Shown here piece after piece: positions 1-17,047 of a stretch of 64,000 nucleotides of DNA. Source of the stretch: Ignavibacteriales bacterium. Lineage in GTDB: Bacteria > Bacteroidota > Ignavibacteria > Ignavibacteriales > Melioribacteraceae. Location: positions 1 to 64,000 of the forward strand of contig JAIOYW010000003.1 in the NCBI GenBank assembly GCA_021740915.1. Direction: 5' to 3'. Within the stretch, counting starts at the first letter, position 1, and every line of letters starts with the position of its first letter. The translations under genes were made by a program, and so were the position numbers. The notes under the pieces are model-generated. The model was given only the letters and a program-made list of their open reading frames with translations, was not told the DNA's origin and searched no databases.

Positions 1-234
1 GGCAGCGCCCCTTCGACTGCGCTCAGGGCAGCGCCCCTTCGACTGCGCTCAGGGCAGCGCCCCTTCGACTGCGCTCAGGGCAGCGCCCCTTCGACTGCGC
101 TCAGGGCAGCGCCCCTTCGACTCCGCTCAGGGCAGCGCCCCTTCGACTGCGCTCAGGGCAGCGCCCCTTCGACTGCGCTCAGGGCAGCGCCCTTGGGCTA
201 CATTCAGGGCAACGCCCCTTCGACTGCATTCCTC
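1..234. repeat. 26-bp GC-rich tandem repeat array
   Basis: Seven near-perfect 26-bp units (1-182) begin GGCAGCGCCCC and end TTCGACTGCGCTCAG. The fifth unit has CTCCG for CTGCG. Two degenerate units follow to about 234. The array touches the left window edge, so its full length is unknown. Each unit contains arms (CCCTTCGACT / AG..GGG) that can fold. Related but decayed units recur at about 14340-14430. There are no unique spacers, so this is not a CRISPR array. No coding function is likely. Confidence 0.9.
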
Positions 235-691: not shown

Positions 692-3232
692 ATGAAAACA
701 CAAAGTATTAAAAATAGCTTTCTAATACTGGGAATATTCATATCGCTCCTCTGCTGCATAGAGAAGCCTGAGGATTTGATAACAGGAGCGGGTATAACGA
801 CAGGGTTTGGGGGAAGGGTATTTGACCATCAAGGTAATCCGTTAATCGGAGTAAGTCTGACAACAGAACCCACAACCCGAAGTGTAATAACCGACAGTAA
901 GGGCAATTACACATTCAAGGGAATAAAGTCCGGTAACTATACGTTAAAGTGCTCACCGGAAAACTATGTACCAATAAGTGAGGAAATAACAGTCACAGAG
1001 AAAGAATTTACCATAGTAAACCTACAGACGGTAATAAAAGGGATAGTTACGGGGAAAATAACCGATCAAACTACAGGGGCAGCGGTAGAAGGAGTAACAA
1101 TAACAACAAGTCCCGAGAGTATAATAACGGCAACTGATGAGCAGGGGATATACCGGTTAGAATACGTTACAGCAGGGGAATATACAGTTAAGGCGAATAA
1201 GAGTGAATATGTAGAGATAACGAAAGCAGTGAAAGTAGAGAACGGAAAGACCAAAACCCAGAATATAGTAATGGTAACAACGTGGGGAAATGTCACCGGA
1301 AAAGTAACCGATGAGACAACGGGTTTAGCAGTCACAGGGGCAACAATAACAACAACACCTGCAACTAAGACAGTAACAACAGACGCCCAGGGGAATTACA
1401 CAATAGAGAAGATAGCAGCCGGGAGTTATACGATCCGGGCAAACAAGACTGAATATGTAGAAATGACCTCACAGATAGCAGTAGAGAACGGAAAGACGAA
1501 AACCCAGAATATAGTAATGGTAACAACGTGGGGAAATGTCACCGGGAAAGTGACCGATGAGACAACAGGCTTAGCAGTAACAGGGGCAACAATAACGACA
1601 ACACCTGCAACGAAGACAGTAACGACAGACGCCCAGGGAAATTATACTCTTGAGAAGATAGCGGCAGGGAGTTATACGATCCGGGCAAACAAGACTGAAT
1701 ATGTAGAAATGACCTCACAGATATCAGTAGAGAACGGAAAGACAAAAACCCAGAATATTATTATGGTAACAACGTGGGGAAATGTCACCGGAAAAGTTAC
1801 TGATGAGACAACGGGCTTAGCAGTTACAGGGGCAACAATAACGACAACCCCGGCAACTAAAACAGTAACGACAGACGCCCAGGGAAATTATACGATTGAA
1901 AAGATAGCCGCCGGGAGTTATACGTTAAAAGCAGAAAAGACAGATTATGTGGATAAAACAGCAAGTGTAACAGTACAGAATGGGCAGACCAAAACCCAGA
2001 ATATAACAATAATAATAAAAGGATCCGTCACCGGTAAAGTAACAGATGAAACAACGGGACAACCGGTGCAGGGAGCAACAATCACCACAACACCTGCAAC
2101 AAAGACAGTAACGACAGACGCCCAGGGAAATTATACGATTGAAAAGATAGCCGCCGGGAGTTATACGTTAAATTTCACAAAAACAGACTATGTTGGAAAT
2201 ACATCGGCTGTCACAGTGGAAAATGGAAAAACAAAAACAGTAAATGCTACAATTGTTATAAAAGGATCGGTTATTGGAAAAGTAACAGATGAGACAACAG
2301 GCTTAGCAGTGGCAGGTGCAACAATAACGACAACACCTGCAACAAAAACAGTATTAACAGACGCGCAGGGAAATTACACACTTGAAAAAATAACTGCCGA
2401 GAGTTACACACTTAATACGGTAAAAACAGGATACTACACAGCAGGAGTATCAATAACTATTACTAACGGACAAACCATAACGAAAAATTTATCACTTATA
2501 CAAGAAATTGGAGGAATGGTATATGTCCCTGGCGGGACATATCAGATGGGAGATACCCGCAACGAAGGTGCTTCAGATGAAAAGCCTGTGCATAGTGTAA
2601 CGCTGAGTTCATTTTATATTGGTCAATATGAAGTAACACAGAAACAATGGTTTGAAGTAATGGGCACAAGCCCGTCATATTTCACGGGAGACAATCTGCC
2701 TGTTGAGCGCGTAACATGGTATGAAGCAGTAAATTTCTGCAATGCACTGAGCGATGAGGAAGGACTTGAACGATATTACACAGTAAACGGAACAACAGTA
2801 ACAAGCAATCCGGGAAAAAAAGGCTACCGGCTGCCGACAGAGGCAGAATGGGAATATGCAGCAAAGGGAGGATTGACAGGCTCAGGAAGCCCGACAAAAT
2901 ACTCAGGGAGCGATAATATAGAAGAAGTAGCGTGGTATGGGGATAACTCAGGAAACACGACACATAACGTAGGGACAAAAGCAGCAAATGAATTAGGGAT
3001 CTATGATATGAGCGGAAACGTATGGGAATGGTGCTGGGACTGGTATGGAGAGACATACTACAGCAGCAGCCCGTCACAAGACCCGCAGGGACCTGCAAGC
3101 GGCAGTTACCGTGTTCTGCGCGGCGGCTCGTGGGGCTACGTCGACGGCGTCTGCCGTTCTGCTAACCGCTACAGGAGCAATCCAGGTGGCGGGAACAACG
3201 ACTTCGGTTTCCGTCTTGCCCGGGACTTATAG
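692..3232 (+). CDS. Variable surface protein: carboxypeptidase-regulatory-like repeats plus FGE-sulfatase domain with DGR-type variable C-terminus
   Basis: An 846-residue exported protein. An N-terminal hydrophobic segment ends in LLCC at residues 19-22, suggesting a lipoprotein, although the lipobox is not canonical. Seven beta-sandwich repeats of about 81-82 residues (carboxypeptidase regulatory-like, each with GxVTGKVTDETTG and TDAQGNYT motifs) fill residues 30-600 and probably form a stalk. Residues 606-846 are an FGE-sulfatase/SUMF1-like (C-type lectin fold) domain with VPGGTYQMG, RLPTEAEWEYAA, GNVWEWCWDWYG and RGGSW motifs. Codons for residues 815-838 are the variable region described separately. 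The positions corresponding to the catalytic cysteines of true formylglycine-generating enzyme fall in this variable stretch and are not Cys here, so I infer a binding rather than an enzymatic role. The domain is close in DNA to that of the caspase-like gene at 11098. Start ATG 692; no clear Shine-Dalgarno. Confidence 0.85.
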   Translation: MKTQSIKNSFLILGIFISLLCCIEKPEDLITGAGITTGFGGRVFDHQGNPLIGVSLTTEPTTRSVITDSKGNYTFKGIKSGNYTLKCSPENYVPISEEITVTEKEFTIVNLQTVIKGIVTGKITDQTTGAAVEGVTITTSPESIITATDEQGIYRLEYVTAGEYTVKANKSEYVEITKAVKVENGKTKTQNIVMVTTWGNVTGKVTDETTGLAVTGATITTTPATKTVTTDAQGNYTIEKIAAGSYTIRANKTEYVEMTSQIAVENGKTKTQNIVMVTTWGNVTGKVTDETTGLAVTGATITTTPATKTVTTDAQGNYTLEKIAAGSYTIRANKTEYVEMTSQISVENGKTKTQNIIMVTTWGNVTGKVTDETTGLAVTGATITTTPATKTVTTDAQGNYTIEKIAAGSYTLKAEKTDYVDKTASVTVQNGQTKTQNITIIIKGSVTGKVTDETTGQPVQGATITTTPATKTVTTDAQGNYTIEKIAAGSYTLNFTKTDYVGNTSAVTVENGKTKTVNATIVIKGSVIGKVTDETTGLAVAGATITTTPATKTVLTDAQGNYTLEKITAESYTLNTVKTGYYTAGVSITITNGQTITKNLSLIQEIGGMVYVPGGTYQMGDTRNEGASDEKPVHSVTLSSFYIGQYEVTQKQWFEVMGTSPSYFTGDNLPVERVTWYEAVNFCNALSDEEGLERYYTVNGTTVTSNPGKKGYRLPTEAEWEYAAKGGLTGSGSPTKYSGSDNIEEVAWYGDNSGNTTHNVGTKAANELGIYDMSGNVWEWCWDWYGETYYSSSPSQDPQGPASGSYRVLRGGSWGYVDGVCRSANRYRSNPGGGNNDFGFRLARDL
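1287..2270 (+). repeat. Coding tandem repeat, 246/243-bp period
   Basis: Within the gene at 692 the DNA repeats with a 246-bp period (the GTCACCGG motif recurs near 1293, 1539 and 1785), then a 243-bp step to about 2028. The three central copies are nearly identical even at many synonymous sites, which suggests recent amplification or gene conversion. The period is a whole number of codons, so copy-number change keeps the frame. Confidence 0.85.
3134..3205 (+). other. DGR-type variable region VR1
   Basis: Twenty-four codons between the invariant TGG (GGSW motif) and GGT-TTC-CG. Compared with the matching codons at 12904-12975, 21 of 72 bases differ, all at codon positions 1 or 2 and none at position 3. 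In 18 of the 21 one copy has A; in the other three (codons 2, 5 and 13) neither has, which fits independent mutation of a template A. The invariant island TGC CGT TCT GCT contains no A. The inferred template codons are mostly AAC. Just upstream, the two genes differ only at synonymous third positions, the opposite pattern. Confidence 0.88.
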
Positions 3233-3248
3233 TTTTTGTTACCCTTTG

Positions 3249-3291
3249 CCCGCCCCGCTCTGCCCCGCAAGGCGGGGCTTTGCGGGGCGGG
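3249..3291 (+). other. GC-rich hairpin downstream of VR1
   Basis: CCCGCCCCGC (3249-3258) pairs with GCGGGGCGGG (3282-3291). Inside, GCCCCGC (3262-3268) pairs with GCGGGGC (3272-3278) over an AAG loop, with a TCT/TTT internal loop. It begins 17 bp after the stop codon. A closely similar structure follows VR2 (13041-13076). It lacks a T-run, so a simple intrinsic terminator is less likely. In the Bordetella phage BPP-1 DGR, a hairpin/cruciform just downstream of the variable repeat is needed for efficient homing; a like role is inferred here. Confidence 0.7.
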
Positions 3292-3297
3292 GTATGA

Positions 3298-3979
3298 GGA
3301 AGAGAATGATGTTAAAAAAAAAGTTGGTTTTGTTGTGTGGGAGAACTCACCCCTGCCTACCGGCAGGCAGGCCCTAACCCCCTCTCTTAGCCAAGAGAGG
3401 GGGAAAACAGAGGCTCAAATAGCCGTGTGATCAGTGGGGGGTGAGTTGAGGATGCCAATAAAGACCTGGCTAATGCCAAGTGACCAGAGTTGAAATTTCA
3501 GCAAGTATGGTGAGGATTGTTTAAACAGGATTTTCAGTATTGGATGATGGGTGAGATAAGTTGGTTTTTAATGTGGGAGAACTCACCCCTTTGAAGGAAA
3601 AGCAGATTTACCTCGCATTTTCCCCTCCCTGCCCCGCAGAGCGGTGGTCTTGGCAAGAGTCCCGCGAACGGGATAAAAGGGGTTGGGGTGAGTTTGAAAT
3701 GAAGGAAATATTGGACTATTCAAGAGCCCTGTTTGCCCCGCTCTGCGCGGCGTTGCCGGGTAAAAGGGGGAGAAAACCCGGCTCGGAGAGGTATATGGGT
3801 CGAGTAGGGCCTGCCTGCCCTGCCTGCGGCAGGCAGGCGCAGGCAGGGGTGAGTTTGCTATAACAAAACCAACAGGATACGCTCAATGGGATGCTGGTCT
3901 TTGAGAAACCACATTTTGCGGTGCAAAAGAGTTAAGACAGAGTAATGGTATTAAAAAATAAATTGATAACGAAAAGAAT
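3298..3979. repeat. Intergenic repeat-rich stretch
   Basis: No gene is seen. It holds several ACTCACCCC...GGTGAGTT modules (about 3340-3450, 3570-3700, 3740-3860). One of these, with the GAGGGGGAAAACAGAGGCTC segment, recurs at 4390-4485. The CGCGGTGGTCTTG-like and GTCCCGCGAACGGGATAAAA segments are shared with 243-690 and 8281-9280. Short GC-rich inverted repeats such as GCCTGCC...GGCAGGC occur at 3830-3850. Confidence 0.75.
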
Positions 3980-4369
3980 ATGAGCTTAAAGGTACCGGAA
4001 AGTCTGAGAATGATTGCAAAAATCAGCGCACGGGAAATGCGGAAGACATCCACTCCTGAAGAGGAAATGGTGTGGGAAATATTACGGAACAGAAAATATA
4101 AAGGGATAAAGTTCTTAAGACAGCACCAGATATTTTATGATTTGAAGGGACAGACAACCGTCATGATTACGGATTTCTACTCAAATGAATTGCAGCTGGT
4201 TATAGAAATAGATGGGGGATACCATGAGAATATCAAAAGAGAAGATGAGGAAAGAGATAAAATTTGTGAATTACTTGGATTAAGAGTATTAAGGATAAAA
4301 AACGATCTAATAAAGAAAGATTCAGGAGAATTCATTCGGAAGCTTGAAGGATTTATTAAAAATGATTGA
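3980..4369 (+). CDS. DUF559 domain protein (endonuclease-like fold)
   Basis: A 129-residue cytoplasmic protein matching the DUF559 family: an N-terminal AREMRKTSTPEEEMVWEILR stretch, then KGIKFLRQH, an acidic ITDFYSN segment and VIEIDGGYH, followed by DEERDKICELLGLRVLRI. The D...E-x-D arrangement is that of the Vsr/restriction-endonuclease-like fold, so DNA nicking or cleavage is plausible, but the biological role of the family is unsettled. It stands alone between repeat-rich spacers and is often found scattered in such genomes. Length is usual for the family. Start ATG 3980; the upstream GAAAAG is only a weak ribosome site. Confidence 0.85.
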   Translation: MSLKVPESLRMIAKISAREMRKTSTPEEEMVWEILRNRKYKGIKFLRQHQIFYDLKGQTTVMITDFYSNELQLVIEIDGGYHENIKREDEERDKICELLGLRVLRIKNDLIKKDSGEFIRKLEGFIKND

Positions 4370-4654
4370 TGAAAAAAAGGTGGTTTTTTGTGTGGGAGAA
4401 CTCACCCCCCAACCCCCTCTCTTGGCTAAGAGAGGGGGAAAACAGAGGCTCAAATAGCCGTGTGATCAGTGGGGGGTGAGTTGATTGCAGGAAGAAAGAA
4501 CCGCCTTCTGCAGGCAGGCGGTAGGCAGGGGTGAGTTTGAAATAATACTCCGCGTGGCCAAGGGAAAGATCATTGCCCCGGAGACGTGAAACAGGAATAA
4601 ATTGAGGTACAAATTTTAACGAAGATAATTTCTCTAATTTATAACAACTAACTC
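4370..4654. repeat. Intergenic repeat copies
   Basis: Gene-free. It contains a second copy of the module at 3340-3450 (GAGGGGGAAAACAGAGGCTC, then a shared AGCCGTGTGATCAGTGGGGG segment) and a partial module at 4500-4550 with GGCAGGCGGTAGGCAGGGGT. The last 100 bases are ordinary AT-rich upstream sequence for the gene at 4668. Confidence 0.7.
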
Positions 4655-4662
4655 AAAAGGAG
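4655..4662 (+). promoter_or_regulatory. Strong ribosome binding site
   Basis: AAAAGGAG lies 5 bases before ATG 4668 and fixes the start of the LPP20-like lipoprotein. Such a clear site is uncommon in this window. Confidence 0.75.
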
Positions 4663-4667
4663 CAGTT

Positions 4668-5249
4668 ATGAAAAAACAACTTTCAATTATCGTTCTTCTT
4701 TTTGCCGTATTATTTGTATTTGCATGCAGCGGTTCTCAGCCGCTTCCGCCAACTGATGAAGGCGATATCCCGGCATGGTTCATGGAATTCAGCAACGATA
4801 TGAACTTTTTCACATCAGCAAAAACAGCAACATCCAAAGATATGCAGATGGCTATTGATAAAGCAGTTACTGATGCACGGGCTGAAATAAGCAACCAGCT
4901 TAATCTTAAAGTGCAGAATCTTATCAAGAAATTTTCGGATGAAGTGGGTACGAATGAGAATTCAACTCTTGTTCAGCAATATTCGAACACAATCAAAACC
5001 TACACCGAGCAGCAGCTTTCCGGCAGCCGTATTATGAAACAGCAGGTAAAACGCGATGGAAATAATTTCCGCTCTTATGTGCTGGTAGTGTATCCATTGG
5101 GCGCAGCTAATGCAGCTCTGCAGAATGCTTTGCAGAAAGATCAGGAGATGTGGATAAAATACCAGTCTTCTGAAGCTCAGAAAGAGTTGGACGAAGAGAG
5201 CCGCAAGTATAATGAAGATATGGAAAAGATCAAAAATATGCCGAAATAA
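4668..5249 (+). CDS. LPP20-like lipoprotein
   Basis: A 193-residue predicted lipoprotein. The signal ends in VFAC, with Cys about residue 20 as lipidation site. An LPP20-like region follows (IPAWFMEF, then a long amphipathic stretch IDKAVTDARAEISNQLNLKV, and a beta segment SYVLVVYPL). The C-terminal 40 residues are charged and likely coiled coil (EAQKELDEESRKYNEDMEKI). Probably anchored at the outer membrane facing the periplasm; the biochemical role is unknown. It is the first gene of a four-gene run (4668-8270), and its stop codon overlaps the next start in TAATG, implying translational coupling. Confidence 0.75.
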   Translation: MKKQLSIIVLLFAVLFVFACSGSQPLPPTDEGDIPAWFMEFSNDMNFFTSAKTATSKDMQMAIDKAVTDARAEISNQLNLKVQNLIKKFSDEVGTNENSTLVQQYSNTIKTYTEQQLSGSRIMKQQVKRDGNNFRSYVLVVYPLGAANAALQNALQKDQEMWIKYQSSEAQKELDEESRKYNEDMEKIKNMPK

Positions 5250-5962
5250 TGCTTAGAACGATATTAGTTATTTTTATTGGCATATCCGGAGTTTTTGCGC
5301 AGGATTTTCCCGACTGGTTCCTGAAGCAGGGGGATTATCCGGGAATTGTTGTGGGATATTCAACGAATGCTTTTATAAACGATTCGTCTTATGCTTATGC
5401 ACGGAAGGATGCCGCCTGTAATATGGCGGCATTCAGCCGGGTGCAGATATCCGGCGAAAGGGCTTATACCGATACAGAAGCCGGTTTTTTCTATGTGAAG
5501 GATTCTTTCCGTGAATATTTCGACTGCGGATCCTTTACAGGAACAGCCGCAAAAATGGCCGCTTTCGATTCAGTTCAAATGGCAGATTATGTTATTATTG
5601 CTCTTGATCGGAACGGGATCGAGGGCAGATTATTATCCGGGCAAATTACAAAGAGTGGGTTTTCAAAACCTGCCTGGCTCGATTCCCTTCCTGCAGATGC
5701 AGAATACATTTACGCCCGCGGCGATTCGGAGCCGAATCTCTTCGAATCCGATGCGTGGAAAAACGCAGAAAAACGGGGCAGAATAAGACTCGCTCAGCAG
5801 AAGGGCGGAAAATTCCGCGAACTTACACGGAAAGACGTTGTGGAAACAGCAAAATATAAATCGGAAAATATTGATGTGATCATTTCCGGTATTGAAGTTA
5901 CTGGAAGGTACTTTGATCCTTCCATTCAAAAATACTTTGTCCTTTTAAGGATGAAGGACTGA
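5249..5962 (+). CDS. Secreted LPP20-like protein
   Basis: A 237-residue protein with a signal peptide (cleavage after GVFAQ, about residue 18). The mature N-terminus DFPDWFLKQGDYPGIVVGYS resembles the start of LPP20-like proteins, followed by an ARKDAACNMAAFSRVQ helix. A second DWF-like motif (PAWLDSLP) near residue 148 and ARGDSEPNLFESDAWKNAEKRGRIRLAQ suggest a duplicated version of the same fold. ATG overlaps the previous stop by one base. Function unknown; probably works with the neighbouring secreted proteins. Confidence 0.65.
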   Translation: MLRTILVIFIGISGVFAQDFPDWFLKQGDYPGIVVGYSTNAFINDSSYAYARKDAACNMAAFSRVQISGERAYTDTEAGFFYVKDSFREYFDCGSFTGTAAKMAAFDSVQMADYVIIALDRNGIEGRLLSGQITKSGFSKPAWLDSLPADAEYIYARGDSEPNLFESDAWKNAEKRGRIRLAQQKGGKFRELTRKDVVETAKYKSENIDVIISGIEVTGRYFDPSIQKYFVLLRMKD

Positions 5963-5973
5963 CGAGGTGTAAA

Positions 5974-7479
5974 ATGCAAAAATTTATTCTCTTGATATGG
6001 ATATTTATAACTTCAGGCTTATATGCGCAGGATGAGGGATATAAAAAATGGCTGGAAGCGCAGAATAAAAATTTTAAGAATTACCAGGATGAAATGGATA
6101 AGAAATTCGGGGATTACCTGAAGCAGCAGTGGAAGCAGTTCGAATCCTTTGCCGGAAAAAAGGCGGACGAGAAACCGAAGCCGAAAACACTGCCCAAAGC
6201 TGATCCGGCGGCGGCTCCTCCTGCAGTTAAGCAGCCGGCTGAGAAGCCTGTAAGTCCGCCGAAGCCTGAACCAAATCCGATACCGGAGACAGAACCGGCG
6301 CCGATGCCGAAACCTGTTCCGCCACCTCCTCCAAAACCACAGCCTATTGCTCCTCCGGCGGCTGTTTCCCCTTATTCAGTATTAGATATTCCTTTTTTTG
6401 GCGTCAGCGCCAAAATATCCGCCCCGAAAGAAGTGAAAGCAAAGCTTATTCCTCCGGTAAATAACGATAAAATAGCTTCGTTCTGGGATGAGGTTTCCCA
6501 AAAGGATTTTTCTAAAGTTTTAAGTGAAGCTGCAGAAAAGCGGGCGGAAATGAATCTCAACGATTGGGGTTATTTGCTGCTGCTCAAAAAATCAGCCGAT
6601 GCCATCTATAGAAAAGGATCAGCCGAGAGCACACTGCTGCTCTGGTATCTGCTCAATAAGTCCGGATACATGGTTAAGGTCGCTTATAATAAGGAGGGCG
6701 GTGTTTTCCTGCTTGCTGCAAGCGAGGACATGATATATGGAATGTCCTATATTTTCCGCCACGACAAGGTGGTCGATTATATTATTGATCCTGATAACCT
6801 TCGGAATGAAAGCGTGGGCAGTGTTTATTCTTACGATAAGGATTTCCCCGGTTCAAAAAAAATGCTGAGCATGAGTTTTTCAGGCAGCCTTGCAATTGGC
6901 AATGATATAAAAGCCAAAAAATTAAATTTTAGTTATAAGGGAAAAAGTTTTGAATTAAATATCCGTTATAATAAAAACTCCGTTGATTTTTTCCTTGACT
7001 ATCCTTACGTAAAATTAGAAAATTATTTCAGTTTTCCACCGAGTCCTGAGGCTTCTTCCAGTCTGATCAGCGGATTAAAGCCGGTTATCGCCGGTAAATC
7101 TAAACCTGAGCAGGTAAATATGATCATGCGCTTTGTTCAAACGGCGTTTGAGTATAAGGTTGACGACGATAATTTCGGACGGGAGAAGCCCCTTTTTAGG
7201 GATGAGATTCTGCACTATCAGTACTCTGACTGCGAGGATAGGGCGATTCTCTACACATATCTTGTGAAAGAATTAACAGGCCTGAAGGTTGTTGCTATTG
7301 ACTGGCCCGGGCATGTGGCGGCGGCAGTTAAATTTGATGAATCTGTCCCGGGTGATTACATTACATACAAAGGAGCAAAATACACTGTTACCGATCCTAC
7401 TTATATAAATTCTTATGCGGGAATGTGTATGCCGGATTTTAAAGCGGTGCAGCCTGAAGCAATTATAGAGATAAATTAG
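5974..7479 (+). CDS. Secreted transglutaminase-like protein with proline-rich linker
   Basis: A 501-residue exported protein (signal ends SGLYAQ, about residue 19). A charged helical stretch (20-60) is followed by a Pro/Lys-rich linker (about 65-130), then a globular region, and a C-terminal transglutaminase-like fold. The likely catalytic triad is visible: Cys420 in SDCEDRA, His447 in WPGHVAAAV and Asp474 in VTDPTY. Members of this superfamily act as cysteine proteases or cross-linking or amidase enzymes; which reaction occurs here cannot be told. Its position in the run with LPP20-like proteins suggests envelope processing. It starts 11 bases after the previous stop with a GAGG ribosome site. 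Confidence 0.8.
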   Translation: MQKFILLIWIFITSGLYAQDEGYKKWLEAQNKNFKNYQDEMDKKFGDYLKQQWKQFESFAGKKADEKPKPKTLPKADPAAAPPAVKQPAEKPVSPPKPEPNPIPETEPAPMPKPVPPPPPKPQPIAPPAAVSPYSVLDIPFFGVSAKISAPKEVKAKLIPPVNNDKIASFWDEVSQKDFSKVLSEAAEKRAEMNLNDWGYLLLLKKSADAIYRKGSAESTLLLWYLLNKSGYMVKVAYNKEGGVFLLAASEDMIYGMSYIFRHDKVVDYIIDPDNLRNESVGSVYSYDKDFPGSKKMLSMSFSGSLAIGNDIKAKKLNFSYKGKSFELNIRYNKNSVDFFLDYPYVKLENYFSFPPSPEASSSLISGLKPVIAGKSKPEQVNMIMRFVQTAFEYKVDDDNFGREKPLFRDEILHYQYSDCEDRAILYTYLVKELTGLKVVAIDWPGHVAAAVKFDESVPGDYITYKGAKYTVTDPTYINSYAGMCMPDFKAVQPEAIIEIN

Positions 7480-7490
7480 GAGTATTTGAA

Positions 7491-8270
7491 ATGAAAAAAA
7501 CACTCGTATTTGCAGTTATTTTTGCCGGCTGGTTGAGCGCAGTTAATGCGCAGATAGTAACGGATAAGCAGAAAAAGACTATGGATGATATGCTTAGGGA
7601 AATGGAGACAGGCAAGCTGACTCTCTATTTTACGGATGCACTTACCGGTAGGGGGATAAAGGGCGTTAAAGTGGCGCTTGGCGAAATGGATAAATATATA
7701 ACCGATTTCGAAGGGAAAATACTTTTTGAACTCATAGAGCCGAATGCAGTTATTATCGTAAAAGCTGAGCATGAAAAATATATCGCGGCAGAATTTGAGA
7801 TAGAAGCCGAAGCCGGAACCATACGCGGCAATCAGTTCTCCCTTTCACCAAAGATGCCGGTCGGGGCTGTGCGTATTGTGCTCGATTGGGGTAAATCGCC
7901 GGCTGATCTCGATCTGCATCTCGAAAAGGTGAGCGATTATCATATCTCGTACCGGAACAAACGCGTCTCTGCCGATGGAATTGCTAATCTCGACCGCGAT
8001 GATACAGACGGGCAGGGTCCTGAAACAATTACAGTGAAACGTGTTGATAACGGCGCCATATACAAATGCTTCGTACACGATTACAGCAACAAATCGAACA
8101 AACAGAGCCGCGCTTTGTCGGATTCAGAGGGCAATGTTAAAGTATATGGCGGAAATAACGAGCTACTGCATGTTATTCGTATTACGCCTGATATGTCCGG
8201 TGTGAACTGGCATTTGTTCGATATCCGAAATGGGATGATTGAACTGAAAAATAATGTTGAGGAATGGTAG
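7491..8270 (+). CDS. Secreted DUF2135-like (YfaP-type) protein
   Basis: A 259-residue exported protein (signal ends AVNAQ, about residue 21). Residues 40-110 look like a small beta-sandwich of carboxypeptidase-regulatory type (LYFTDALTGRGIKGVKVALG, YITDFEGKI). Residues 118-255 fit the DUF2135/YfaP pattern: VRIVLDWGKSPADLDLHLE, YRNKRV, LDRDDTDGQGPETITV. An extracellular or periplasmic role is expected; no enzymatic residues are evident. Last gene of the 4668-8270 run, with AGGAG ahead of the start. Confidence 0.7.
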   Translation: MKKTLVFAVIFAGWLSAVNAQIVTDKQKKTMDDMLREMETGKLTLYFTDALTGRGIKGVKVALGEMDKYITDFEGKILFELIEPNAVIIVKAEHEKYIAAEFEIEAEAGTIRGNQFSLSPKMPVGAVRIVLDWGKSPADLDLHLEKVSDYHISYRNKRVSADGIANLDRDDTDGQGPETITVKRVDNGAIYKCFVHDYSNKSNKQSRALSDSEGNVKVYGGNNELLHVIRITPDMSGVNWHLFDIRNGMIELKNNVEEW

Positions 8271-8280
8271 CAGAATTCTG

Positions 8281-9418
8281 AAACATGATTCAAAAAATTG
8301 TCTGAACCATGATTCACAGGATTGAAGGATTGGCAGGATTATTTATGACCCCTAAGGGGTCAAATGTTTATAGAAAAAAGCGTACGAAACATCGTACGAC
8401 CCCGACGGGCCTGCGTGCCCTGTCTGCGCAGGGCAGGGTCGAACATATGTCAGGAAGGCAGATGGTATCGCAGTGATCGTGACGAAGCAATCTAAGCGAT
8501 CAAATATCCAGGTTGTTTGTTGAGACTCTACAGGAAGGTAAAGCGAGCCGCCTTGAGTGGATAAGGATGCTTAAAAAGTTGGTTTTGTTATGTGGGATAA
8601 CTCACCCCCTCTTGCCTGTCGGTATCTCGGGCAAATGGTGCCCCTCTCTTGGAAAGAGAGGGGTTGGGGTGAGTTCGAAATAATGTGCTCCGCGGTGGTC
8701 TTGGAAAGAGTCCCGCGAACGGGATAAAAGGGGGGCAGGCAGGGGTGAGTTGATCTGTTGTTCTGAGAAAAATTGTCTGAACCATGATTCACAGGATTGA
8801 AGGATTGGCAGGATTATTTATGACCCTAAGGGGTCAAATGTTAATAGAAAAAAGCGTACAAAACATCGTACGACCCCGACGGGCCTGCGTGCCCTGTCTG
8901 CGCAGGGCAGGGTCGAACATATGTCAGGAAGGCAGATGGTATCGCAGTGATCGGGGCAAGGGCATGTTTCTACACGAAGGGCACGGACGGTGTTGAGTGG
9001 AGTAGGATGATGAATAAGTTGGTTTTTAATGTGTGGGATAACTCACCCCCTCTTGCCTGTCGGTATCTCGGGCAAATGGTGCCCCTCTCTTGGAAAGAGA
9101 GGGGTTGGGGTGAGTTCGAAATAATTTGCTCCGCGGTGGTCTTGGAAAGAGTCCCGCGAACGGGATAAAAGGGGGGCAGGCAGGGGTGAGTTGACCTGTT
9201 GTTCTGAGAAAAATTGTCTGAATCATGATTCACAGGATTGAAGGATAGGCGGTATGTGGGGAGATTCAAGATATGCAAGGCGGTAAGATGTGTAAACAGG
9301 ATTAATATGATTAAATGTTTGATATAATTCTTTTTGATTATTAGCCTTGAAGGTTTTGGAATTAATTTGCGGGAATATTATTCAAATACAACAGAATAAT
9401 AATTAAGCGGGAGAAAAA
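8281..9418. repeat. Interspersed intergenic repeat, copies 2 and 3 in tandem
   Basis: About 1.1 kb without genes. Two near-identical units of roughly 475 bp begin at about 8297 and 8772 with AATTGTCTGAACCATGATTC, and a third truncated one begins at about 9216. Each full unit holds the palindrome TGACCCCTAAGGGGTCA (8346-8362; one C lost at 8821-8836), a GTACGACCCCGACGGGCCTG segment, the CCCCTCTCTTGGAAAGAGAGG palindrome and GTCCCGCGAACGGGATAAAA. The second unit carries an internal deletion near 8950. Copy 1 is at 243-690. The final 120 bases are unique upstream sequence for the gene at 9419. Confidence 0.82.
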
Positions 9419-10945
9419 ATGAAAAATCTTGTAAAAACGCTTGCGGTTATTATATTATTAAATTTAACAATTGATGCTCAGCCTGACTGGGTAACAACAT
9501 TAGGGGGAAGTTCAAGATATCCGGATGCGCTTTTTCTTGCGGGATATGGAATGAGTTCCCTTACTGAAGGCTTATCAAAAGAACAATGCCTTCAGCTATC
9601 TTTTGATTATGCGAGAAAAGACCTGACCGAGAAAATAAGAGTGAGCATAAACGCTGAATACCAGTCCGAAAAAAAAGAAGATGAAAGCGGATATTTCAAT
9701 TCAGTAAAAGCTGTTATTAATTCATCCTCATCGCTTGAGATTGAAGGGCTTAACAGAGAGACATATTATGATGATGACGGTGAGGTTTACCACACTCTTG
9801 TACATGTGCGCAAGGATGAGCTTGCTGTTTCCGCCGAAAGGAGGAAAAACAATATTATAGAAGGGTTGAAAGAAAAGGTCAGACTTGCCGCTGAATTTGA
9901 GAGTAATAATGAGCCCCAAAAAGCTGCTTTGGCTTATCGTGAATGTTTTCCGATGTTCCGCAAACTCGAAGAAACGGAAGTACTGGTTTCGGCGGCAGGT
10001 TTAAGTGATTTTATGTTATATAGCGAAACTGAGGGGAAACAGGCAGCCGTTATCACCCCCGAAATAGTTAATTCAAGGATATCTGCAATTGAAAAACGTG
10101 AACCGTTAAAACTAAGCGAGGCATTAAAACAATTTGCCGCAGATATCAGGCATAACGTGCCCTCTGGTTCGTCCCTGATTCTTTTCCCATTCTCATACAG
10201 AGATACCAGAACTGCCTCAGAGTTTTCTGCTTTTGCAATGAGGGCTCTTGAGAGGAATTTTACTGAGCTGGGCTTTCGTCTTACACAGAATAGTAGTGAA
10301 GCCGATTTTCGGGTAACAGGCACTTACTGGAATAATGAACCAGATATCCGCCTGATAGGTATTATAATGGACCGGAATAATATTGCATCAGGCAGTTCCG
10401 AGAAAATATTCCCGCTGAAATTGATTGTTAACGAAGGGCTTTCTATCCTGCCTCAAAATTTTGAGAAAGCATTTGCTGATAAAAAAATTTTTGAGGAAGG
10501 GGAGGTTACCGGAAACGGTCTGAACCTTGAGCTATGGACAAATAAAGGCGATGACGCTCTACTTTTTGAGGGAGGGGAAACAATGGAAATATTTGTAAGG
10601 GTAAATCTTCCATGTTATATTCGGCTGATAGATCATATGGCGGACGGTTCCAGGGTTCTATTACTCGATGAGTATTATATCGATGCTTCCAAAGTAAATA
10701 AAGTTTTTCGGATACCTTTGGAATTTGAGTGTGCACCTCCTTTTGGCACAGAAACGCTTCAATTATTCGGTCAGACTTCCAATTTTTCAAAATTAAACAC
10801 TATATTCAAAGATGGATATGATTTTATTCAGGATGATCTGAAAGAAATGAACAGGAATACCCGCGGTTTTAAGAAAAAGGAGCCTAAAGAACACTTCGCT
10901 GAAAAAAGGTTAGTTCTTACTTCGATACCAAGGGAGAAATGGTAG
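9419..10945 (+). CDS. Secreted LPP20-like / DUF4384 domain protein
   Basis: A 508-residue exported protein (signal ends TIDAQ, about residue 21). Mature residues begin PDWVTTLGGSSRYPD and continue with LAGYGMSS and a long helix, as in LPP20-like domains. Residues 120-240 are helical and possibly TPR-like. A DUF4384 domain (about 365-465) reads LWTNKGDDALLFEGGETMEIFVRV...YIRLIDHMADGSRVLL. DUF4384 is known to occur attached to caspase-like peptidases in bacteria, and the next gene is a caspase-like protein, so a functional link is reasonable. Start ATG 9419, with GGGAG six bases upstream. The last 50 residues are basic (KKKEPKEHFAEKR). Confidence 0.75.
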   Translation: MKNLVKTLAVIILLNLTIDAQPDWVTTLGGSSRYPDALFLAGYGMSSLTEGLSKEQCLQLSFDYARKDLTEKIRVSINAEYQSEKKEDESGYFNSVKAVINSSSSLEIEGLNRETYYDDDGEVYHTLVHVRKDELAVSAERRKNNIIEGLKEKVRLAAEFESNNEPQKAALAYRECFPMFRKLEETEVLVSAAGLSDFMLYSETEGKQAAVITPEIVNSRISAIEKREPLKLSEALKQFAADIRHNVPSGSSLILFPFSYRDTRTASEFSAFAMRALERNFTELGFRLTQNSSEADFRVTGTYWNNEPDIRLIGIIMDRNNIASGSSEKIFPLKLIVNEGLSILPQNFEKAFADKKIFEEGEVTGNGLNLELWTNKGDDALLFEGGETMEIFVRVNLPCYIRLIDHMADGSRVLLLDEYYIDASKVNKVFRIPLEFECAPPFGTETLQLFGQTSNFSKLNTIFKDGYDFIQDDLKEMNRNTRGFKKKEPKEHFAEKRLVLTSIPREKW

Positions 10946-11097
10946 GACTAAAAAACCGGGAGAATTATTTAGGTGGATATAAGAAATAGCAGGAAGCCGA
11001 TCCGAAAGTAAGATCACATAAAGACTGTCTCTTGCGTACTTTATTCCTAAAAGATCGTTTTTGGAAGAATTTTTTTCATATAAATATTGAGTGCTTT

Positions 11098-13002
11098 ATG
11101 AAAAAGTTTTTAGTTTTATTGCTAATAGCGCTACCTTTGATTGCACAAAGCAGAGGCATTAAAATAACAGGCAAAGAAGGACAGAGTTTATTACTCTACG
11201 ATGAAAGTTATGCTCTGGTGATAGGCGTTAGTAATTATAATAATGGCTGGCCCAAACTACCCGGAGTAAAAAAGGATGTTGATGAAGTTATAAACGCACT
11301 AAAAGAAAACGGATTCAGTGTTACCAAACTCATAGACCCCGACAAATCAGAATTCGACAAAGGCATTTCGGAATTTATTAGGAAATATGGGAGTAAAAAA
11401 AATAACCGGCTTTTATTCTATTTTGCCGGACATGGGCATACGATAAAGGCAAGTTACGGGGATGAACTCGGTTACTTCGTAACGGCAGATTCGCCGCTGC
11501 CCTCAAAAGGGGAAGCATCTTTTCAGAGCAATGCAATAGAAATGGCGCAGATAGAGATATACGCAAAGCGTATCCAGAGCAAACATGCACTTTTTCTTTT
11601 TGACGCATGTTTTTCAGGAAGCCTGTTCTCACTGAGCAGAGCAGTGCCAGCAGCAATTAGCTATAAGACGAGTGAAGACGTAAGGCAGTTTATTACAAGC
11701 GGAAGCGCTGAAGAAACTGTGCCTGATAAATCGGTATTCCGTGAACAATTTGTAAGAGCTCTTAAAGGAGAAGGCGATCAGAACAATGATGGATATGTGA
11801 CAGGAACTGAACTTGGAGAATTTTTGCAGAATTCAGTGGTGAATTATACCAGAAATTCTCAGCATCCGCAATATGGCAAAATCCGGAATCCAAATCTTGA
11901 TAAAGGTGATTTTGTTTTTGTTGTAAACAAAAATGCTAAGAACAAGCTGGTGACAAGTGCGCCGGAAACAGATTTCAGTCTTGATGATCTGAATGAGAAA
12001 GAAACGGAAGCTAAGAAGTCCTGGAATACGAACCTCGTGGAAATGAAATCTGCATACAAAAAAGTTAAAAATTTCGAGAGTGGGAGTTCTTCTGCGGCAG
12101 ATAAAAAAGAGGCATGGCAAAGGTTCTTAAACGCATTTACGACAGATAACCCCTATTCGGCGGAAGATAACGAAATGCTGAGAGAAGCCGGAGAAAGAAT
12201 ATCATATTTCAAAAATTACAAGGATCCGGTAATTTCCAGACCACCTTCGGAAGCACCGAACAGGATGGTTTACGTAGCAGGCGGAACCTACCTGATGGGC
12301 AGCAATGATGGGTTTGATAGTGAAAAGCCGGTGTATAGCGTAACAGTCAGCAGTTTTTATATCGGTAGATATGAAGTAACTATAAAAGAATTCAGAAAAT
12401 TTATTGAAGCAACAGGTTATAAGACTGACGCAGAAAAGAATGGTTTTAGTTATATCTGGAATGGCGAAACTTTAGAAAAAAGAAATGGAGTTAACTGGAA
12501 AAGTGATGAGAAAGGAGATGAACGATCCCAGGGAGAAGACACACATCCAGTTATACATGTAAGTTGGAATGATGCCGATGCTTATGCAAAATGGGCAGGG
12601 GGACGCCTTCCGACAGAGGCAGAATGGGAATATGCAGCGAGAGGCGGGGCTTTAAGTAAAGGATATAAATATTCAGGAAGTGATAATATAGAAGAAGTAG
12701 CGTGGCATGATGGTTATTCACGCAGAAAAACCCATCCTGTAGGAGAGAAGAAGCCGAATGAATTAGGAATCTATGATATGAGCGGAAACGTATGGGAATG
12801 GTGCAGTGACTGGTACGGAAAGACATACTACAGCAGCAGCCCGGTAAAAGACCCGAAAGGACCGGCAAGCGGCAGCTACCGTGTCCTTCGCGGCGGCTCG
12901 TGGAACGACGACGACATCAACTGCCGTTCTGCTTTCCGCGGCGGGGGCGATCCAGGTAGCAGGAACGCCGTCTACGGCTTCCGGCTTGTTCAGGACTTAT
13001 AG
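11098..13002 (+). CDS. Secreted caspase-like (C14) protein with FGE-sulfatase domain and DGR-type variable C-terminus
   Basis: I place the start at ATG 11098 because MKKFLVLLLIALPLIAQ is a good signal peptide; an upstream TTG at 11032 would bury it. The product is 634 residues. Residues 35-270 are a caspase-like peptidase with YALVIGVSNY, His112 in FAGHGH and Cys171 in DACFSGS, so the catalytic dyad is intact. An EF-hand-like loop (DQNNDGYVTGTEL, about 226-238) may bind calcium. After a linker, residues 389-634 are an FGE-sulfatase/C-type-lectin-like domain (VAGGTYLMGS, RLPTEAEWEYAARGG, GNVWEWCSDWYG). Codons for residues 603-626 are a DGR-type variable region. Inferred logic: a diversified ligand-binding domain linked to a protease. 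The catalytic cysteine positions of real formylglycine-generating enzyme are absent. Confidence 0.88.
   Translation: MKKFLVLLLIALPLIAQSRGIKITGKEGQSLLLYDESYALVIGVSNYNNGWPKLPGVKKDVDEVINALKENGFSVTKLIDPDKSEFDKGISEFIRKYGSKKNNRLLFYFAGHGHTIKASYGDELGYFVTADSPLPSKGEASFQSNAIEMAQIEIYAKRIQSKHALFLFDACFSGSLFSLSRAVPAAISYKTSEDVRQFITSGSAEETVPDKSVFREQFVRALKGEGDQNNDGYVTGTELGEFLQNSVVNYTRNSQHPQYGKIRNPNLDKGDFVFVVNKNAKNKLVTSAPETDFSLDDLNEKETEAKKSWNTNLVEMKSAYKKVKNFESGSSSAADKKEAWQRFLNAFTTDNPYSAEDNEMLREAGERISYFKNYKDPVISRPPSEAPNRMVYVAGGTYLMGSNDGFDSEKPVYSVTVSSFYIGRYEVTIKEFRKFIEATGYKTDAEKNGFSYIWNGETLEKRNGVNWKSDEKGDERSQGEDTHPVIHVSWNDADAYAKWAGGRLPTEAEWEYAARGGALSKGYKYSGSDNIEEVAWHDGYSRRKTHPVGEKKPNELGIYDMSGNVWEWCSDWYGKTYYSSSPVKDPKGPASGSYRVLRGGSWNDDDINCRSAFRGGGDPGSRNAVYGFRLVQDL
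12904..12975 (+). other. DGR-type variable region VR2
   Basis: Twenty-four codons aligned without gaps to 3134-3205. Third positions are identical in all 24 codons, while 21 of the 48 first or second positions differ. Invariant codons (TGC CGT TCT GCT, CGC, CCA GGT) contain no A except the third base of CCA. Variable codons end in C, G or T and are explained by a template rich in AAC, AGG and AAT. This is the adenine-directed pattern of DGR mutagenic retrohoming. Confidence 0.88.
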
Positions 13003-13076: not shown

Positions 13077-13149
13077 TGGTGGCACACTGAGTGAAGCGAA
13101 GTGTGCCGGTGGATTTTTTGATGTGGTGTGGTTTGCAAGTCGGGCAGCT

Positions 13150-14103
13150 GTCTGAACCGGGATTTATGAGATTAAATGATTACCTTGATTCTTTTTAATC
13201 CCGCAGAAAAACCTCAGACGGAAGATCAATGACCCCGAAGGTTATGAAATAACACGAACACTCTCATAAGCACCGAAGGTGCGGTGATCAGTAACACAGC
13301 CCGAAGGGCTGTGAAATCAAACGAACACTCTCACAAGCGCCAAAGGTGCGGGATTATTCCCACAGATACCGCTCATCTTTATAATCGATTTCGTTAGTTG
13401 AGTTTATTCCGCACCTTCAGCGCTTATTTGAACCCCTTCCACTTTTCAAACTTTCGTGATACCCAAGTCCAACTTTATCGCGTTTATGGAACTTGGCTGC
13501 ACATTCATTATTCTTCTGAATCAGCACTGAAGGTGCGATAATGATTAGATTATTTCGCTTTCATGTCATTGCCGCGCTCTGTGGGGGTAAACGAGGAGCC
13601 TGCGACGAAGCAATATCAAAAAAATTGTCTGAACCATGATTTATTTGATTAAATGATTACCTTGATTCTTTTTAATCCCGCAGAAAAACCTCAGACGGAA
13701 GATCAATGACCCCGAAGGTTATGAAATAATACGAACACTCTCTTAAGCACCGAAGGTGCGGTGATCAGTAACACAGCCCGAAGGGCTGTGAAATCAAACG
13801 AACACTCTCACAAGCGCCAAAGGTGCGGGATTATTCCCACAGATACCGCTCATCTTTATAATCGATTTCATTAGTTGAGTTTATTCCGCACCTTCAGCGC
13901 TTATTTGAACCCCTTCCACTTTTCAAACTTTCGTGATACCCAAGTCCAACTTTATCGCGTTTATGGAACCTAACTTTACATTCATTATTCTTCTGAATCA
14001 GCACTGAAGGTGCGATAATGATTAGATTATTTCGCATTCATGTCATTGCCGCGCTCTGTGGGAGTAAACGAGGAGCCTGCGACGAAGCAATATCAAAAAA
14101 ATT
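13150..14103. repeat. 477-bp tandem duplication
   Basis: Two consecutive copies (about 13150-13626 and 13627-14103) of a 477-bp unit starting TGTCTGAACC differ at only a few bases; for example TACCTTGATT occurs at 13181 and 13658. Each contains palindromes GCACCGAAGGTGC (13270-13282 in copy 1), CACAGCCCGAAGGGCTGTG (13295-13313) and GCGCCAAAGGTGCG-like arms. No open frame persists through it. Confidence 0.85.
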
Positions 14104-14339
14104 GTCTGAACCGGGATTTGTATGATTAATGGATTAACAGGATTATTTTTTGACCCTTGCGGGGTCATATGTTGATAGAAAAAATGCACAAAATAAACGT
14201 GCGACTCCGAAGGAGTCGAATAGAATCCTTAATAATCACATTCCTATAAACATTCGATGCCTTCGGCATCGTTGATATAGAAAATAAATCCAGAGAGAAC
14301 TATCTATCGAGGAGATATCGTCAGGTCGCTGAGTAATCC

Positions 14340-16439: not shown

Positions 16440-17047
16440 TGTACAAGTTTTAGTCCCTGAGTTGCAGAAGTATCCCCTTCATTGAGCGAAAGGGCATTGA
16501 CGAAGAGTTCTTTGGCTTTTTGCTTATTGCCAAGGTAATAATATGTCCAGCCGAGCGAAATATTGGTCTCATAATCTGAGGGATAATTCGAATTGTTTTT
16601 TTCCAGGAGTGTCTTTGCGTTTTTATAGTCTCCGGAATTAAGGTATATCTGACCGAGTCTCAAATTCGCAGTATAATTTAACGGGTCTTTTTTTAACACT
16701 TCTTTATAAATATCTCTTACGCCCGACCAGTTATTTTGCCCGGAGAGGGGATAAGTGAGTCCCAGTTGCGACTCGACAGAATTGCTGCTAACTCTCACTG
16801 CCTCGCGGTAGTATTTTTCCGATTTCTGATAATCGGTTTTAAGATAATACAGCCAGCCAAGCCTTAAATTGACGAGGTAGTCGTTCCTATTCTCTTTTAA
16901 GAGATCGTTCATATACGAAATTGCTTTATCGTAATTTTTTGCATTTTCAGCGGATATAGATTTATTTATTACAGCGTATTTAGTTGTCTGTCCGTTAACC
17001 GCAGAAATAAGCAGCAGAATAAGTACCGAATATATTAATTTTTTCAT
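16436..17047 (-). CDS. Secreted tetratricopeptide repeat protein
   Basis: A 203-residue exported protein (signal ends SAVNGQ, about residue 20) with about five TPR units, e.g. YLVNLRLGWLYYLKTDYQKSEKYY, YTANLRLGQIYLNSGDYKNAKTLL and TNISLGWTYYYLGNKQKAKELF. Likely a periplasmic protein-interaction scaffold for the operon. It overlaps by four bases with both the urea-transporter/M23 gene upstream and the barrel gene downstream. Confidence 0.8.
   Translation of the reverse strand: MKKLIYSVLILLLISAVNGQTTKYAVINKSISAENAKNYDKAISYMNDLLKENRNDYLVNLRLGWLYYLKTDYQKSEKYYREAVRVSSNSVESQLGLTYPLSGQNNWSGVRDIYKEVLKKDPLNYTANLRLGQIYLNSGDYKNAKTLLEKNNSNYPSDYETNISLGWTYYYLGNKQKAKELFVNALSLNEGDTSATQGLKLVQ

What the first reader, a model, noticed from the sequence alone, without database searches (positions are those of the whole stretch)
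3134..12975. Paired DGR variable regions with adenine-directed codon pattern
Two FGE-type lectin-like C-termini (3134-3205 and 12904-12975) align without gaps over 24 codons. Twenty-one bases differ: all at codon positions 1 or 2, zero at position 3. In 18 one copy has A; in three neither does (codons 2, 5 and 13: T/G, G/T, T/G), as expected if a template A was changed independently in both. There are no C/T differences. In the 33 bases just upstream the only differences are synonymous third positions. Ordinary selection gives the reverse. This is what adenine-specific mutagenic retrohoming of a diversity-generating retroelement produces from an AAC-rich template.
Basis: partly seen in the sequence, partly recalled or inferred. 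Interest (0 to 1): 0.95.

Follow-up and report, generated by a model that had tools for sequence, protein, structure and literature searches.

The report
Orphan DGR variable regions, four proteins
Several exported lectin-like proteins of this bacterium carry a short patch rewritten by a known bacterial hypermutation machine (a diversity-generating retroelement); the machine itself is missing from the draft genome, so this is a good new example of a known kind, with one open question.

Summary
The two FGE/C-type-lectin C-termini differ at 21 of 72 bases, none at a third codon position; upstream in the same domains 88 of 199 third positions differ. None of 175 control FGE pairs, each with at least one gene from a relative, shows this (third-position share 0.23 or more). 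Two more genes of this type lie on contig C5: VR3 shares the framework, VR4 looks older.

Relatives G117 (same order) and G054 (same family) carry complete DGRs with FGE targets. There 58 of 58 and 13 of 13 TR/VR mismatches fall on template adenines. At the window's 21 differing sites the G117 template has A at 20, including all three sites where neither window copy has A.

The window's own TR, RT and DGR-type Avd were not found in the assembly, which is not closed: 37 of 70 contig ends have no overlapping partner. These are therefore remote ("orphan") DGR variable regions, on a stalked lipoprotein-like protein and an exported caspase-FGE fusion. The cassette was missed in assembly or binning, was lost recently, or acts from a mobile element. 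New member of a known kind.

The parts
692..3232 (+). Target gene 1 (846 aa): lipoprotein-like N-terminus, array of CarboxypepD_reg-type repeats, C-terminal FGE-sulfatase (C-type lectin) domain
   Evidence: ORF; PF13620 (7 stretches) and PF03781 3.6e-55; lipobox is read by eye, inference
3119..3205 (+). VR1: variable region (24 variable-zone codons preceded by the shared CGC GGC GGC TCG TGG framework)
3249..3291 (+). GC-rich inverted repeat downstream of VR1, candidate target-recognition hairpin or a terminator (not decided)
   Evidence: -26.5 kcal/mol, z -4.08, 0 of 200 shuffles as stable
11098..13002 (+). Target gene 2 (634 aa from the ATG at 11098; the ORF list starts it at the TTG at 11032): signal-peptide-like N-terminus, caspase (Peptidase_C14) domain, C-terminal FGE-sulfatase domain
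   Evidence: PF00656 3.2e-17 and PF03781 6.6e-70 (scanned from 11101); signal peptide and the HG / DACFSG motifs read by eye, motif meaning recalled
12889..12975 (+). VR2: variable region

Best explanation
VR1 and VR2, with VR3 on contig C5 and probably the older VR4, are remote target variable regions of a diversity-generating retroelement. Inferred mechanism, as known for DGRs: a TR RNA rich in AAC codons is copied by an error-prone DGR reverse transcriptase with Avd. Adenines are randomised, and the cDNA replaces about 87-100 nt at the 3' end of each target gene by homing. Framework bases and third positions are thereby kept, and lectin-site residues are scrambled. Shown: the VR pattern, uncoupling of VR from host gene for VR1-VR3, and matching template adenines in two relatives with complete DGRs. 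Inferred: that the machinery acts or recently acted in this lineage, and what the proteins bind. The cassette is not in the draft genome. I rank the causes: lost in assembly or binning (about 55%), lost from the lineage recently (about 25%), supplied in trans by an unbinned mobile element (about 20%). The confidence below is for the DGR origin of the VRs, not for any one of these causes.
For: Third positions: VR1/VR2 0/24 against 88/199 upstream (p 2.8e-6); VR2/VR3 1/24 against 89/199 (p 4.0e-5); VR1/VR3 1/24 against 47/204 (p 0.033). By backbone VR1 is nearest VR3 and VR2 nearest VR4, but VR1, VR2 and VR3 share one framework. Control: 175 FGE pairs with at least one gene from a relative, third-position share 0.23 to 0.51, median 0.37; VR1/VR2 is 0/21. 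Complete DGRs in relatives: G117 and G054 have FGE target, avd-like ORF, RT with GNLTSQ and Y[VM]DD, TR; G117 has three further VRs on other contigs; 58/58 and 13/13 TR/VR mismatches at A. The G117 Avd passes NF033474 (100.9 bits, cut-off 80); those of G054 and G110 were judged by eye. A in the TR at 20/21 and 19/21 of the window's differing sites against 14/27 and 10/27 of its unchanged position-1/2 sites, p 0.0011 and 0.00025. The best solved-structure match by sequence is TvpA 2y3c, E 3.2e-51, ahead of FGE enzymes; that TvpA is a DGR variable protein comes from PMC6328139 passages.
Against: No RT in the assembly by RVT_1 at E<=0.001 or by a DGR RT profile at E<=10; no TR; no DGR Avd above cut-off (best 15.3 bits). 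VR3 has 6 extra bases and TCG ACT where VR1/VR2 have TCT GCT, so one fixed TR does not explain all. VR4 does not share third positions: 8/24 against VR1 and VR2, 9/24 against VR3, and its shares (0.24 to 0.26 of differences) lie inside the control range. Adenine share from the window pair alone is not significant (p 0.075) and is not raised in the pairs with VR3. The one differing site that is not A in the G117 TR (codon 24) is not A in G054 either.
Confidence: 0.92

Rival explanations
1. Ordinary gene conversion among FGE paralogues plus strong diversifying selection on the binding site.
For: Shared third positions can come from conversion; position-1/2 differences can come from selection. 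The adenine share of the pair alone does not exclude it.
Against: Conversion would carry positions 1 and 2 as well; here they differ at 21 of 48 sites while third positions are 24/24 identical. 0 of 175 control FGE pairs resemble it. Differing sites coincide with template adenines of real DGRs in relatives.
Confidence: 0.04
2. Fossil (a sub-case of the DGR reading): the DGR was lost from the lineage and the VRs are relics kept as fixed binding proteins.
For: No RT, TR or DGR Avd found in an assembly rated 100% complete. VR4 looks aged (third positions 8/24 against VR2). VR3's downstream contig end shares 127 exact bases with the end of contig C27, in whose last 9 kb I read no RT-like gene.
Against: VR1, VR2 and VR3 have 0-1 third-position differences in 24 codons, so at most a recent loss. 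37 of 70 contig ends have no overlap of 25 or more and the smallest contig is 5253 bp, so a cassette of about 2 kb could be missing.
Confidence: 0.25
3. Trans system (a sub-case of the DGR reading): the TR-RT cassette sits on a phage or plasmid outside the binned chromosome and rewrites chromosomal exported proteins.
For: G110, same order, has a VR-avd-TR-RT set in a neighbourhood I read by eye as phage-tail-like (inference).
Against: 0 exact framework matches in the viral collection, with one degenerate pattern that could not have found VR4 (the tool warns that records very near the window's genome may be left out). In G117 and G054 the cassette lies next to an FGE target, not on an evident phage. 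Plasmid records were not searched.
Confidence: 0.18

Closest known systems
   Same: FGE-type targets with C-terminal VR; a similar framework with W, CR, R, P and GFR in register; A-rich TR; remote VRs on other contigs in G117
   Different: TR, Avd and RT present beside a target; the window's genome shows targets only
Treponema denticola TvpA (PDB 2y3c), DGR variable protein
   Same: FGE-type domain with the C-terminal segment in register; best sequence match in the PDB; FGE-subtype C-type lectin, C-terminal VR and DGR status from PMC6328139 passages
   Different: The solved chain is 294 aa, the size of an FGE domain; the window proteins add a repeat stalk or a caspase domain. The TvpA chain itself was not scanned for other domains
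Cyanobacterial remote variable proteins with orthocaspase N-termini (PMC7517822, passages read)
   Same: Caspase-like peptidase at the N-terminus of proteins with a C-terminal DGR C-type lectin; remote targets far from the RT
   Different: Most of those are described as predicted cytosolic; the window protein has a signal-peptide-like start (read by eye)
Thiohalocapsa PB-PSB1 DGRs (PMC10907252, passages read)
   Same: Incomplete DGRs and candidate remote targets, explained by trans action for some and by loci disrupted in part of the population for others; FGE and caspase-like CHAT targets in putative conflict systems
   Different: There intact RT and TR exist elsewhere in the genome or population, and diversification was measured

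Membership tests
DGR (complete element) | DGR reverse transcriptase | tested here: inconclusive
   Not found in the assembly: RVT_1 and DGR RT profile at E<=10. The family and profile ring in G117, G054 and G110 (the profile was built from those three). Assembly open. Not filed as a complete DGR.
DGR (complete element) | Template repeat (TR) with A at variable sites | tested here: inconclusive
   Not found in the assembly with VR1 or with an inferred TR as query; the same inferred TR query finds the G117 and G054 TRs. Assembly open.
DGR (complete element) | Accessory Avd | tested here: inconclusive
   Best NF033474 hit 15.3 bits against cut-off 80; the PF05635 hits, at four places, were read by eye as IVS-type proteins without an RT neighbour. 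Not all DGRs carry Avd (recalled).
DGR target (variable region) | Differences confined to positions that are adenine in the template | tested here: met
   20/21 A in the G117 TR, 19/21 in the G054 TR; proxy templates from relatives, not the cognate TR
DGR target (variable region) | VR at the 3' end of a gene with a C-type lectin (FGE) fold | tested here: met
   fold by sequence homology only
DGR target (variable region) | VR replaced as a unit from a common template | tested here: met
   Third-position identity between VR1, VR2 and (but for one site) VR3 across diverged host genes, sharp edges. Not met for VR4 (8/24).
DGR target (variable region) | Ongoing population diversity at VR sites | not testable with these tools
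   No reads; no second genome of the genus among the rows shown (most rows without a match are not listed)
Formylglycine-generating enzyme | Catalytic Cys pair in the C-terminal segment | tested here: not met
   In the alignment of VR1 to solved FGE 2q17 the first FGE cysteine of that segment faces Tyr and only one Cys remains (CRSA); which cysteines are catalytic is recalled, not called

The most novel reading that the evidence does not exclude
A DGR whose template and RT are carried outside the chromosome (phage or plasmid) diversifies several chromosomal, exported proteins in trans, among them a caspase-lectin fusion: a mobile hypermutation service for a host's envelope sensors.
Probability: 0.15. 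Interest if true: 0.65.

Novelty: new member of a known kind. Interest (0 to 1): 0.4.

Why it matters
It shows that DGR variable regions can be recognised from target genes alone, by comparing codon positions between paralogues, with no TR or RT at hand. RT-anchored surveys (PMC8144416 says so of its own method, passage) miss such remote targets. It also adds an exported caspase fusion and a stalked lipoprotein-like protein as DGR targets in this order.

Tried and rejected
Adenine share as a stand-alone proof: rejected, not significant against upstream differences (18/21 against 73/115, p 0.075), and not raised in VR1/VR3 or VR2/VR3. Of 30 sites variable among VR1-VR3, 23 include an A and 7 do not, one of these at a third position.

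A single shared TR for all four copies: rejected. VR3 has a 6-base insertion and two framework changes; VR4 has 8/24 third-position differences from VR1 and from VR2. Older or variant templates are needed.

A cassette hidden just past the end of contig C5 (350 bp after VR3): made less likely. C5's end and C27's end share 127 exact bases, and among the ORFs of 100 aa or more in the last 9 kb of C27 I read no RT. But the overlap is itself part of a dispersed repeat (39 matches including itself, with 40 of 60 candidates scored, so a lower bound), so the join is not certain.

PF05635 (IVS/Avd-like) hits in the genome as the missing Avd: rejected.

The single genome contigs pattern hit (Kiritimatiellae, L083) is an FGE C-terminus with a similar framework and was not followed up. 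One viral-contig scan gave 0. The pattern could not match VR4, and the tool warns that records near the window's genome may be left out.

Structure prediction was not run; the fold rests on sequence homology to TvpA and FGE. The hairpins downstream of VR1, VR3 and VR4 (z -4.08, -2.89, -2.35) are not specific: GC-rich repeats are common between genes here. The VR2 slice gave z -0.29 (66 of 200 shuffles as stable); I had cut it before the end of its repeat.

Control: 29 relative loci were given, 16 passed my motif filter and 13 were dropped. With the 4 own copies 184 pairs could be measured, 6 of them own; 175 of the other 178 had 12 or more position-1/2 differences and were counted. Many of these pair an own copy with a relative's gene, and their backbones are mostly more diverged than VR1/VR2.

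A comparison of the ORFs at 5974-7479 and 9419-10945 as possible duplicates found no similarity. Contig C9's start and the C29 stretch were fetched but not analysed further.

Full report
WHAT WAS CLAIMED AND WHAT IS THERE. The two 72-base stretches (3134-3205, 12904-12975) align without gaps and differ at 21 bases: 12 at codon position 1, 9 at position 2, none at position 3. Eighteen include an A; the other three are T/G, G/T and T/G in codons 2, 5 and 13; there is no C/T difference; the 33 bases upstream differ only by three synonymous third positions. The chance that 21 of 72 differences avoid all 24 third positions is 2.9e-5.

HOST GENES. Gene 1 (692-3232) has a lipoprotein-like start, a run of carboxypeptidase-regulatory-like repeats and a C-terminal FGE-sulfatase domain; gene 2 (11098-13002) has a signal-peptide-like start, a caspase domain and a C-terminal FGE-sulfatase domain (signal sequences and catalytic motifs read by eye). 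The draft genome (4.35 Mb, 35 contigs; the window is the start of contig C2) has five FGE domains. Four share the C-terminal framework: the two in the window and two on contig C5, at C5:351-470 and C5:11902-12013, minus strand, here VR3 and VR4. The fifth (C29) does not, by eye.

UNCOUPLED HISTORIES. Along the FGE domain, VR1 and VR2 differ at 88 of 199 third positions upstream but 0 of 24 in the VR (Fisher 2.8e-6); VR2 and VR3 at 89 of 199 against 1 of 24 (4.0e-5); VR1 and VR3 at 47 of 204 against 1 of 24 (0.033). By backbone VR1 is nearest VR3 and VR2 nearest VR4, yet the VR framework groups VR1, VR2 and VR3. The patch was therefore copied in from a common source after the genes diverged, and its positions 1 and 2 were then, or in the act, changed heavily. 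VR4 is different: third positions 8 of 24 against VR2, the same rate as its backbone (69 of 213), but positions 1/2 are hypervariable against its sister VR2 (26 of 48 against 57 of 426, p 7.6e-10), as for an older VR or one from another template. VR3 has six extra bases and two framework changes, so templates have varied over time.

CONTROL. Sixteen usable FGE genes out of 29 loci from relatives, together with the own copies, gave 175 pairs (own-own pairs set aside) with 12 or more position-1/2 differences in the same segment. Third positions made up 23-51% of the differences (median 37%), against 0 of 21 for VR1/VR2 and 1 of 24 for VR1/VR3 and VR2/VR3. The three pairs with VR4 (24-26%) fall inside the control range.

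ADENINES. From the window pair alone the adenine signal is only suggestive: 18 of 21 in the VR against 73 of 115 among upstream position-1/2 differences, p 0.075; in the pairs with VR3 it is absent (14 of 23 against 28 of 46; 14 of 25 against 82 of 126). The stronger test comes from relatives. An inferred template (window framework with A at variable sites) used as a query against 146 genomes matched in 9, the own genome included; the strong matches in G117 and G054 lie beside reverse transcriptases. In G117 the order is FGE target, avd, RT (GNLTSQ, YVDD), TR; in G054 it is FGE target, another ORF, avd-like ORF, RT, TR; in G110, a weak match, it is VR, avd-like ORF, TR, RT. The G117 Avd passes the NCBIfam DGR Avd model. 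In G117 all 58 mismatches between the TR and four VRs (three on other contigs) fall on TR adenines, in G054 all 13 between the TR and its one VR. Laid on the window, the G117 TR has A at 20 of 21 VR1/VR2-differing sites but at 14 of 27 unchanged position-1/2 sites (p 0.0011); G054 has 19 of 21 against 10 of 27 (p 0.00025).

THE MISSING MACHINE. The assembly gave no RVT_1 match, no match to a DGR RT profile at E<=10, no TR and no DGR Avd above cut-off (best 15.3 bits). The same searches work on relatives. The assembly is open: 37 of 70 contig ends have no exact overlap of 25 bases or more with another end, and the smallest contig is 5253 bp, so a cassette of about 2 kb on a short contig could have been left out. 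Beyond VR3 the contig runs into a dispersed repeat (at least 39 matches with itself) and overlaps the end of C27 by 127 bases, where I read no RT among the ORFs of the last 9 kb.

HOW IT PROBABLY WORKS. By analogy with described DGRs: TR RNA, adenine-mutagenic cDNA, homing into the 3' end of each target. The VR falls on the segment that in this fold forms the binding site; the nearest solved relative by sequence is TvpA (2y3c, E 3.2e-51), and PMC6328139 (passages) describes the variable residues of structurally characterised DGR proteins as solvent-exposed and forming a potential binding site. The products would be exported binding proteins with changeable specificity, one on a stalk and one fused to a caspase. 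What they bind is unknown; surface attachment or sensing of phages or neighbours is inference.

KNOWN OR NEW. Remote targets, caspase-lectin fusions and trans action are all described (PMC7517822, PMC10907252, passages only), and remote targets are said to be missed by an RT-anchored survey (PMC8144416, passages). One search for DGR with Ignavibacteri- found a single paper, of which only the listing was seen; that the organism belongs there is only a guess.

Noticed in passing
window 1-227: A 26-bp tandem repeat (8.8 copies) forms the start of the contig; this contig end overlaps the start of contig C9 by 115 bases.
   Followed up: partly
window 13149-14150: A 477-bp intergenic unit repeated 2.1 times in tandem; parts of it match intergenic repeats dispersed over several contigs.
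   Followed up: partly
window 1234-2406: A 246-base tandem array inside the VR1 gene encodes CarboxypepD_reg repeats, i.e. a stalk that could change length.
   Followed up: no
window 17047-19188, minus strand: One ORF matches both a urea transporter and an M23 peptidase; the fusion struck me as unusual, but its spread was not checked.
   Followed up: no
L075 127-225, L077 123-221, L078 127-225: Three remote VRs of G117 all lie within about 230 bases of a contig end, much like VR3 here; VR genes may tend to break assemblies.
   Followed up: partly
L072 160-258, L073 7458-7556: Genome G131 has two VR-like FGE C-termini close to the window's framework, while its one RT hit (C634) was not inspected and scores far below the DGR RTs with the DGR profile: a possible second orphan case.
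   Followed up: no
L071 around 5935 and 6441: G110 carries a VR-avd-TR-RT set with a quite different target gene, in a neighbourhood that looks phage-tail-like by eye.
   Followed up: no
L083 7700-7798, minus strand: A Kiritimatiellae rumen MAG has an FGE C-terminus with a similar nucleotide framework (53 of 66 non-A positions of the inferred template).
   Followed up: no
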